This document shows positions 51,419-53,848 of a stretch of 64,000 bases of DNA, in pieces. This stretch comes from Caldicellulosiruptor hydrothermalis 108 (GTDB taxonomy: Bacteria; Bacillota; Thermoanaerobacteria; Caldicellulosiruptorales; Caldicellulosiruptoraceae). Within the stretch, counting starts at the first letter, position 1. The number at the start of each line of letters is the position of its first letter. The stretch spans positions 2,590,501-2,654,500 of the forward strand of contig NC_014652.1 in NCBI RefSeq assembly GCF_000166355.1, given 5' to 3'. The notes under the pieces are model-generated. The model had not been told where the DNA came from and searched no databases. It saw nothing but the letters and a program-made list of their open reading frames with translations. Both the position numbers and the translations under genes were made by a program.

Positions 51419-52156
51419 ATGACGGGGCTTGGAACTATAGTAAATGCACTTGCTGTGATTGTAGGCTCTATCTTTGGACTTATTTTAAAATTTGGAATAC
51501 CAGAAAGGTTTAAAACCACAATTATGCAGGCAATTTCTCTTTCTGTCATCTTTATTGGAATTTCTGGAGTATTGCAAGGAATTTTTAAAGTGCTATCAAC
51601 TGGTAAAATAGACAGGCAGTTTATAATGCTCATGATTTTTTCTCTTGTGATTGGTGGGCTTGTGGGAGAGATTTTGAGAATTGAAGACTTTTTAGAAAAG
51701 CTCGGCGATAAAATTAAAAAGTCTGTTTCGAAAGTCATAAAATCAGAAAATTCTGCATTTACAGAAGGTTTTGTCACAGCAAGTCTTGTATTCTGTGTTG
51801 GAGCTATGGCTATTGTAGGAAGCCTTGAAGACGGGCTAAACCATAACTTTAGCATTCTTTTTGCAAAATCTATTTTGGACGGTGTAACTTCCATAATATT
51901 TTCAGCAACACTGGGAATTGGCGTTATGTTCTCAAGCGTTGCAGTGCTTTTCTATCAAGGAAGCATAACACTTTTGGCAGGCCTGATAAAACCATTTTTG
52001 ACAGACACAGTAGTTTTGCAAATGTCAATGGTAGGTTCTGTTTTGATATTTGCAATAGGTCTTAATATGCTTGGAGTGTCAAAAATTAAAGTGGGCAATC
52101 TTCTCCCTGCAATATTTGTGCCTGCTGTCTGGTATGTGGTTAATTTGCTAATTTGA
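51419..52156 (+). CDS. DUF554 family membrane protein
   Basis: 245 residues, about seven hydrophobic segments, with the family start GLGTIVNALAVIVGSIFGL and the motifs FVTASLVFCVGAMAIVGSLEDGL and SKSILDGVTSIIFSATLGIGV-like text near 150-170. DUF554 proteins are found throughout Firmicutes and their function is not known. ATG or a nearby in-frame start follows AAAGGAGAG. It appears monocistronic. Confidence 0.9.
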   Translation: MTGLGTIVNALAVIVGSIFGLILKFGIPERFKTTIMQAISLSVIFIGISGVLQGIFKVLSTGKIDRQFIMLMIFSLVIGGLVGEILRIEDFLEKLGDKIKKSVSKVIKSENSAFTEGFVTASLVFCVGAMAIVGSLEDGLNHNFSILFAKSILDGVTSIIFSATLGIGVMFSSVAVLFYQGSITLLAGLIKPFLTDTVVLQMSMVGSVLIFAIGLNMLGVSKIKVGNLLPAIFVPAVWYVVNLLI

Positions 52157-52374
52157 ATTTTTTAAACTTTTTGAAACTGGCATGTCTTTACTAATTATTT
52201 TTTAGAAATTTCTCAGGAAGCTGAAGACTTTAGAGAAACTCTTTTAGAAATTTTTAAGATAAGGCTGGAAAGACTGAAAGATTCATAAGTACTAAATCTT
52301 TATTTTTAAACTTGAAGAATTTACTTAGAAAATTAAAAAAAGTTATCATCTTGACCGATTAAAAAAACATATTC
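52157..52374. other. Intergenic stretch with a coding remnant
   Basis: Bases 52180-52287 read on the plus strand as a short helical tail (FLEISQEAEDFRETLLEIFK and on to KDS) ending in TAA, without a start codon. It may be the 3' end of a lost gene. Nothing else is seen here. Confidence 0.35.
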
Positions 52375-52403
52375 TTAATATAACACGAGAAAAGGGGTAT
52401 AAT
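52375..52403 (+). promoter_or_regulatory. Promoter of the pseudoknot RNA
   Basis: TTAATA (52375-52380), 17 bases, TATAAT (52398-52403). A further TTGACC lies at 52351-52356. Transcription would start near 52410. Confidence 0.5.
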
Positions 52404-52409
52404 TGATAA

Positions 52410-52520
52410 TAGGAAAGTCTTTTTTCTCAAGTAAGTTTTGTCGGTAACCGGCATCCGACTAATAAAATGCCGGCTCGTAAGTTCTCAAAAAAGAGCCCTC
52501 ATTGTAGAGGGCTCTTATTC
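52410..52520 (+). ncRNA. Pseudoknot RNA with terminator (riboswitch or small RNA candidate)
   Basis: GTCGG (52440-52444) pairs with CCGAC (52455-52459). The loop between them holds CCGGCAT (52448-52454), which pairs with ATGCCGG (52467-52473) after an A-rich linker, forming an H-type pseudoknot. CTTTTTT (52419-52425) can close the whole with AAAAAAG (52487-52493). The same 3' strand leads into a terminator, GAGCCCTC/GAGGGCTC (52493-52514). An aptamer competing with a terminator would look like this. It does not match a riboswitch class I know. Confidence 0.55.
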
Positions 52521-52545
52521 TATATATTCTAAAAAAGGGGAAATA

Positions 52546-52722
52546 ATGCCTGAAACCTCAACTCCACTTTTTATCCAAACTCCTCAACAAAGAAAGGGGC
52601 GGAGGCAAAGGATAGAGTTCCTTTGCGCTTTTGCCGCCCCTTCCAAAATCTATTCTAAAAGGAGGAGTCTCTTTTTTGCATCATCTGATCTTTTCTCATT
52701 TTCCTTTCTATATAATATTTAA
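52546..52722 (+). CDS. Small ORF, 58 codons, after the pseudoknot RNA
   Basis: ATG at 52546 lies 7 bases after AAAAAAGGGG, a strong ribosome binding site, 26 bases past the terminator stem. It encodes a basic peptide starting MPETSTPLFIQTPQQRKGRR with no similarity I recognise. A large hairpin lies inside it: AAGGGGCGG (52594-52602) with CCGCCCCTT (52634-52642) and, nested, GCAAAGGA with TCCTTTGC. The hairpin suggests the RNA may matter more than the peptide. Coding status is uncertain. Confidence 0.35.
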   Translation: MPETSTPLFIQTPQQRKGRRQRIEFLCAFAAPSKIYSKRRSLFFASSDLFSFSFLYNI

Positions 52723-52882: not shown

Positions 52883-53848
52883 ATGATTGCACTTGAAGTC
52901 AAAAACCTTGTAAAAAGATACGCAAATGTCTTGGCTCTTGACAATCTGTCACTGACAGTCAAAGAAGGCGAAGTCTTTGGACTTTTAGGACCAAATGGCG
53001 CAGGAAAAACCACTTTTATAAACTGCATACTGGGACTCACAAACATTGACAGAGGCGAAATTTATATATTCGGAAAACCTTTAAACAAAGCTTTAAAAAA
53101 ATTAAAATCCCAGATTGGAATTGTTCCGCAGGAAATTGCTCTCTACAACAACTTAACTGTGTATGAGAATTTGAGCTTTTTTGGTTCGCTCTATAACCTC
53201 TCAGGGAAGCTTTTGAAAGAGAGAATAGAGTTTGCTTTAGAGTTTGTTCAGATGCAGGATAGCATCAAAAAACAGGTCAAAAACCTATCTGGCGGGATGA
53301 AAAGAAGAGTAAACATTGCAGCAGCTCTTATCAACAACCCCAAACTTCTTATAATGGATGAGCCAACTGTTGGAATTGACATATACTCAAGAAAGCTAAT
53401 TTTGGACTCTGTTCAGAAACTCTCTGAAAGCGGCATTACAATAATTTACACAACCCACTACATCGAAGAAGTTGACAGAATCTGTTCATCTGTTGCGTTC
53501 ATAAATAAAGGAACAATCATCGAATATGGCTCAAAAGAATTTTTATTAAAAAAACTGTCAGATACAAATATTATCAGGATAAAATTGAGCAAGATTTTAG
53601 ATGAGGTTCTGATAAAAATCAAAAACTTAGATGGAGTTGAAAGTGTAGCTTTTGCCGGAAATGAGCTTACAGTTTCTGTTGAAAAGTCAAAAAATCTTAT
53701 AAAAGAGATTGTCGAAACTTTGTCTCAGGATGGATGTGAAATACTTTCCATATCTTATGAAAAGCCCACAATGGAAAAGCTCTACTTTGCAGTGATGGGC
53801 TATACCATAGATGAAAAAGGAGAGATTGTCCATGAGAGCAGCAGTTAA
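52883..53848 (+). CDS. ABC transporter ATP-binding protein (ABC-2 drug/natamycin type)
   Basis: 321 residues. One ATPase domain with Walker A GPNGAGKTTF, signature LSGGMKRR, Walker B LLIMDEPTVGID and an H-loop in IYTTHYIEE. A C-terminal extension of about 90 residues is usual for DrrA/CcmA-type exporter ATPases. ATG at 52883 follows AAGAAGGTGATG. It begins a five-gene unit with two membrane subunits and a two-component system; the next start overlaps its stop. Confidence 0.92.
   Translation: MIALEVKNLVKRYANVLALDNLSLTVKEGEVFGLLGPNGAGKTTFINCILGLTNIDRGEIYIFGKPLNKALKKLKSQIGIVPQEIALYNNLTVYENLSFFGSLYNLSGKLLKERIEFALEFVQMQDSIKKQVKNLSGGMKRRVNIAAALINNPKLLIMDEPTVGIDIYSRKLILDSVQKLSESGITIIYTTHYIEEVDRICSSVAFINKGTIIEYGSKEFLLKKLSDTNIIRIKLSKILDEVLIKIKNLDGVESVAFAGNELTVSVEKSKNLIKEIVETLSQDGCEILSISYEKPTMEKLYFAVMGYTIDEKGEIVHESSS

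What the first reader, a model, noticed from the sequence alone, without database searches (positions are those of the whole stretch)
52375..52722. H-type pseudoknot RNA fused to a terminator, followed by a small ORF
Two perfect interlocking helices (52440-52444/52455-52459 and 52448-52454/52467-52473) sit before a terminator whose 5' arm overlaps a possible closing stem of the pseudoknot (52487-52493). A 58-codon ORF with a strong ribosome binding site begins 30 bases later and contains a second large hairpin. This is the architecture of a terminator-controlled riboswitch or of a regulatory small RNA, and it matches no class known to me.
Basis: partly seen in the sequence, partly recalled or inferred. 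Interest (0 to 1): 0.65.

Follow-up and report, generated by a model that had tools for sequence, protein, structure and literature searches.

The report
Orphan RNA antitoxin, toxin gene deleted
The knotted RNA is the antidote half of a known kind of bacterial toxin-antitoxin pair (CptIN, type III) whose toxin gene has been cut out of this genome, so it is a leftover or stand-alone antidote rather than a new gene switch.

Summary
It is not a riboswitch. A sister species (G007) has the same 46-nt unit, 100% identical, as a tandem repeat (2.15 copies), followed by the same terminator and an intact 163-aa toxin gene. That toxin is CptN: NCBIfam CptIN 163.6 bits against a cut-off of 90, and PDB 4RMO E=5.5e-45. 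Ten CptI units, most read directly upstream of CptN genes in other bacteria, fold into the same interlocked helices. All ten pairs show two-sided changes and 97% of cells are paired.

In the window the array is down to one full unit with both processing boundaries. The toxin gene is deleted in frame, leaving an RBS and a 21-residue remnant. Its "second hairpin" belongs to a different, genus-wide conserved element. Six species share the deletion junction. A seventh kept the RNA after another deletion, and an eighth kept only a decayed toxin piece.

Most likely this is a relic. An antidote kept against incoming CptN toxins is possible but unproven: the pseudoknot is no more conserved than the dead toxin leader.

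The parts
52375..52403 (+). Promoter of the antitoxin RNA: TTAATA-17-TATAAT (TTGATA-17-TATAAT in G007, G009 and G001)
   Evidence: consensus match only
52433..52478 (+). The single CptI-type antitoxin unit, 46 nt; identical to both tandem units of G007
52440..52459 (+). Helix S1 of the pseudoknot: 52440-52444 with 52455-52459
52448..52473 (+). Helix S2 of the pseudoknot: 52448-52454 with 52467-52473; A-rich loop L2 UAAUAAA at 52460-52466
52431..52435 (+). 5' unit boundary GTAAG, inferred processing site for CptN
   Evidence: sequence; repeat boundary in G007; processing inferred from CptI of E. rectale (PMC4627078)
52477..52481 (+). 3' unit boundary GTAAG, start of the fractional second repeat
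   Evidence: sequence; same as the repeat boundary in G007
52491..52516 (+). Rho-independent terminator between antitoxin and (former) toxin gene
   Evidence: same place in G007
52535..52540 (+). Ribosome binding site of the deleted toxin gene (AAGGGG)
   Evidence: identical in G007 ahead of the intact toxin
52550..52615 (+). In-frame deletion scar of cptN: LKPQLHFLSKLLNKERGGGKG*; the first codons of the toxin joined to its last ones (junction about 52573-52576), start codon GTG changed to CTG
52546..52722 (+).

Best explanation
The feature is an orphan antitoxin of a CptIN-family type III toxin-antitoxin module. SHOWN: the same locus in sister species G007 carries two tandem copies of the identical pseudoknot unit, the same terminator and ribosome binding site, and an intact cptN toxin gene. 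In the window's genome all but the ends of the toxin gene are deleted in frame and one antitoxin unit remains, with both unit boundaries. INFERRED: the promoter at 52375-52403 still makes a short RNA of about 105 nt that stops at the terminator. In an intact module the terminator lets only a fraction of transcripts reach the toxin, and the toxin RNase cuts the RNA into single pseudoknots that wrap and silence it. Here there is no toxin left to silence, so the RNA is most likely a decaying relic. If expressed and folded it should still bind and inhibit a CptN of the G007 type.
For: G007 locus: tandem 46-nt repeat, terminator and 163-aa ORF. The ORF is CptN: NCBIfam NF047359 2.7e-48, 163.6 bits against a cut-off of 90; PDB 4RMO CptN 5.5e-45. 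Tandem 44-49 nt repeats (68 nt in L057) lie next to the CptN-family gene in the loci where an array was found (L053-L059, L061, L063-L065, L068-L070), and nearly all fold as H-type pseudoknots. Unit L053a equals the E. rectale CptI repeat given in PMC4627078 but for the last base. Pair counts over ten units: 97% of cells paired, 10 of 10 pairs with changes on both sides, 0 of 500 shuffles and no slid register reach this. Toxin deletion in frame in six species with one shared junction. No CptN match in the window's genome. Single CptI repeats are fully antitoxic in E. rectale CptIN (PMC4627078).
Against: No transcription data. The window has only 1.1 repeat units, and its -35 box has lost one consensus base. 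In two sister orphans a base pair at a helix end is broken (G001 in S2, G009 in S1), and a T/C change at the last S2 position is common. The covariation alignment was cut by hand at the S1 start, although MAFFT added no internal gaps.
Confidence: 0.93

Rival explanations
1. The toxin-less antitoxin is kept as an antidote (anti-addiction or counter-defence): its RNA neutralises CptN toxins that arrive on plasmids or are still carried by sister species, so cells can lose or resist such modules.
For: At least two independent deletions removed the toxin but kept the pseudoknot: the shared junction of six species, and G010. The unit is identical to that of a living toxin locus in G007, keeps both boundaries, promoter and terminator, and differs by 0-4% between species whose flanks differ by 8-28%. 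CptN genes occur on plasmids. One repeat suffices in E. rectale CptI (PMC4627078). A phage is known to escape ToxIN by carrying a pseudo-ToxI RNA (PMC3475682).
Against: The dead toxin leader and junction are just as conserved (mean pairwise 0.025 against 0.026), which points to recent loss or sharing between species, not selection on the RNA. Pair-breaking changes occur in two species. CptI-CptN recognition is highly specific (PMC4627078), and G011 kept a toxin fragment and lost the RNA.
Confidence: 0.2
2. Terminator-controlled riboswitch or leader RNA regulating the gene downstream.
For: A pseudoknot is followed by a terminator and an RBS.
Against: The next real gene (ABC transporter, 52883) lies 360 bases beyond the terminator. 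Four species have the same 3' flank without the pseudoknot. Homologous units occur as tandem repeats ahead of RNase toxins. The proposed switching stem is not conserved. No Rfam hit at gathering score.
Confidence: 0.02
3. A trans-acting small RNA of another class, newly adopted from the antitoxin.
For: Promoter, compact fold and terminator make a complete sRNA gene.
Against: Nothing in the sequence suggests a target-pairing region outside the pseudoknot, and the leader between promoter and unit is among the most variable segments (51% variable columns).
Confidence: 0.04

Closest known systems
CptIN type III toxin-antitoxin system of Eubacterium rectale (PDB 4RMO; PMC4627078)
   Same: H-type pseudoknot unit of 45-46 nt starting AAGTTT, short L1, A-rich L2, repeat array, terminator, then CptN toxin (all present in sister species G007)
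   Different: In the window only one full unit remains and the toxin gene is deleted. S2 is longer (7 pairs) and L1 is up to 3 nt. In the G007 toxin the Ser-Ser-Arg triad reads SSK and Tyr104 is Phe.
ToxIN / AbiQ and TenpIN type III families
   Same: Same genetic plan and pseudoknot antitoxin principle
   Different: The G007 toxin scores below the Pfam ToxN cut-off (18.7 against 25) and far below the TenpIN cut-off (19.5 against 90); their antitoxin units differ in sequence and fold.
Phage pseudo-ToxI RNA (escape of phage PhiTE from ToxIN; PMC3475682)
   Same: Type III antitoxin RNA without its own toxin gene
   Different: That one is phage-borne and shown to work in trans; this one is chromosomal and untested.

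Membership tests
CptIN type III toxin-antitoxin system | CptN-family toxin gene directly downstream | tested here: not met
   Absent in the window's genome, only a 21-residue scar; intact at the same place in G007
CptIN type III toxin-antitoxin system | Tandem array of about 45-nt antitoxin repeats | tested here: not met
   1.1 units in the window; 2.15 units of the identical sequence in G007
CptIN type III toxin-antitoxin system | Antitoxin unit folds as an H-type pseudoknot homologous to CptI | tested here: met
   Same two helices with compensatory changes in all ten pairs across ten CptI units (units)
CptIN type III toxin-antitoxin system | Rho-independent terminator between antitoxin and toxin | tested here: met
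   52491-52516, same place in G007
CptIN type III toxin-antitoxin system | Toxin cuts the antitoxin RNA into units and is inhibited by them | not testable with these tools
   Needs an assay; known for E. rectale CptIN (PMC4627078)
ToxIN (Pfam ToxN_toxin) | Toxin over the Pfam gathering score | tested here: not met
   18.7 bits against a cut-off of 25; no match in any of 12 genus genomes, though the control genomes rang nowhere either
TenpIN | Toxin over the NCBIfam cut-off | tested here: not met
   19.5 bits against a cut-off of 90; no match in 12 genus genomes (controls silent too)
Riboswitch (any Rfam class) | Match to a described aptamer family | tested here: not met
   No hit at gathering score; only chance-level hits with the permissive search

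The most novel reading that the evidence does not exclude
A chromosomal, toxin-free CptI antitoxin RNA is maintained by selection in several species as a pre-emptive antidote against CptN toxins of plasmids or neighbours: the type III counterpart of anti-addiction modules.
Probability: 0.17. Interest if true: 0.55.

Novelty: new member of a known kind. Interest (0 to 1): 0.3.

Why it matters
It shows step by step how a type III module decays in one genus of anaerobes. An intact module, toxin deleted with antitoxin kept (two different deletions), antitoxin lost with the toxin decayed, and empty sites all exist at one chromosomal address. Because the orphan unit is identical to that of a living toxin locus, the question whether lone RNA antitoxins protect against incoming toxins can be tested directly. 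It also shows that an antitoxin RNA can look like an unknown riboswitch when its toxin is gone, since Rfam has no model that recognises it.

Tried and rejected
Rfam at gathering and at permissive E-value: only weak terminator-driven hits such as STnc430, E 0.085, rejected. A repeated element in the own genome: none. Phage origin: no CptN relative in viral contigs or phage records. PADLOC: no hit. The outer closing stem as an antiterminator: rejected, 5' arm variable and 3' arm missing in G010. The 58-codon ORF as a gene: rejected. Purifying selection on the pseudoknot: not supported, since the toxin scar is equally conserved. A DNA search of 398 phylum genomes found the unit only in this genus; the other three hits covered only the terminator region. 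Other type III toxins the orphan might serve (ToxN, TenpN): none found in the genus, but the control genomes also rang nowhere. The first MFE fold cannot represent pseudoknots and was not used for the fold.

Full report
WHAT IS THERE. The window lies in a 2.77-Mb single-contig genome with 11 congeners held. Between a DUF554 membrane protein (51419-52156) and an ABC transporter gene (52883-53848) sits the pseudoknot. Both helices are perfect at the coordinates given. Bare 5+7 bp interlocked helices are common in this AT-rich sequence, but at this stability the site is unique in the window and was reached in 0 of 100 window shuffles and 0 of 5000 local shuffles. A 10-pair terminator follows at 52491-52516.

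WHAT IT IS. DNA comparison with relatives showed that in G007 the element is a tandem array. The 46-nt unit AAGTTTTGTCGGTAACCGGCATCCGACTAATAAAATGCCGGCTCGT occurs 2.15 times, identical to the window, then the same terminator, the same AAGGGG ribosome binding site and a 163-aa ORF. That ORF belongs to NCBIfam CptIN (163.6 bits against a cut-off of 90, E 2.7e-48) and matches the crystallised CptN toxin 4RMO (5.5e-45). It fails the ToxN and TenpIN cut-offs. So the finding is the antitoxin part of a CptIN type III module.

THE RNA UNIT. CptN relatives elsewhere have tandem repeats beside the toxin gene, mostly of 44-49 nt; no array was found for L060, L066 or L067, and L052 has too little flank. 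One of them (L053) equals the E. rectale CptI repeat read from the primer in PMC4627078 except for its last base. Nearly all repeats fold as H-type pseudoknots. Ten units with the same spacing align without internal gaps. The two helices are paired in 97% of cells (shuffled 72.7%, slid registers 28-37%), and every one of the ten pairs has changes on both sides. The loop L2 is A-rich (UAAUAA, AUAUAA), as in CptI, where L2 forms the A-minor twist needed for antitoxicity (PMC4627078).

THE DELETION. Aligned with G007, the window keeps the toxin's RBS and first codons, then jumps to its last codons: LKPQLHF-LS-KLLNKERGGGKG, in frame. Six species (G000, G004, G005, G008, G001, G009) share this junction, so it arose once and was inherited or exchanged. 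In the window the toxin's GTG start has become CTG. G010 has a different deletion that removed terminator and toxin but kept the unit. G011 lost the RNA and keeps a decayed piece of the toxin. G002, G003 and G006 have neither. No CptN match remains in the window's genome.

IS THE ORPHAN KEPT BY SELECTION? Among the six orphans the unit has 3 variable columns of 46 (mean pairwise difference 0.026). The functionless toxin leader and junction have 5 of 66 (0.025). The flanks are far more variable. Equal conservation of the dead toxin leader points to recency or exchange between species rather than constraint on the RNA, and two sisters carry pair-breaking changes. Hence 'relic' is preferred. Against that, two independent deletions spared the antitoxin, both unit boundaries persist, and single CptI repeats are fully active in E. 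rectale (PMC4627078). An antidote role is therefore not excluded. A phage-borne precedent for toxin-free type III antitoxin RNA exists (pseudo-ToxI, PMC3475682). No paper in the held library was found that reports a chromosomal orphan CptI; the founding survey of type III systems (Blower 2012) was not held.

SURROUNDINGS. The same intergenic stretch carries a relic of a second toxin-antitoxin system. Window 52205-52288 encodes the C-terminus of an MntA-like nucleotidyltransferase (20 of 23 residues identical to the G010 copy), whose fuller but decayed MntA/HepT pair stands in G010 and G009. Downstream, a hairpin followed by a 33-base motif (31 specified bases, none or one mismatched) is present once in each of the 12 genus genomes and in none of 25 other genomes of the class. 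It is independent of the toxin-antitoxin module and unexplained.

VERDICT. A good catch of a real structured RNA, correctly described, but it is a toxin-less member of a known kind (CptI antitoxin of CptIN), not a new riboswitch class.

Noticed in passing
window 52594-52670: Hairpin (AAGGGGC..GCCCCTT, with changed and compensating upper pairs) followed by the near-invariant CCCCTTCCAAAATCTATNNTAAAAGGAGGAGTC: exactly one copy in each of 12 genus genomes, next to DUF554 in those read, none in 25 other genomes of the class, with or without the toxin-antitoxin module. An unexplained candidate regulatory RNA or leader.
   Followed up: partly
window 52205-52288: In-frame relic of the C-terminus of an MntA-like nucleotidyltransferase (MntA/HepT toxin-antitoxin pair, itself decayed in G010 L040:736-1419 and G009 L049:318-1026): this intergenic spot has taken up and lost at least two toxin-antitoxin systems.
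   Followed up: partly
L039:1470-2140 (G007): Apparently intact CptIN module in a sister species: two identical 46-nt units and a 163-aa CptN, with SSK in place of the Ser-Ser-Arg triad and Phe in place of Tyr104.
   Followed up: yes
L068:1180-2844: A Fusobacterium polymorphum plasmid with a CptN-like gene (annotated hypothetical, behind three 47-nt repeats) beside a gene annotated as ToxN/AbiQ family toxin: two type III toxins side by side.
   Followed up: no
L069:663-743 and 1026-1126: A Megamonas funiformis plasmid with two different CptI-like repeat arrays ahead of one CptN-like gene.
   Followed up: no
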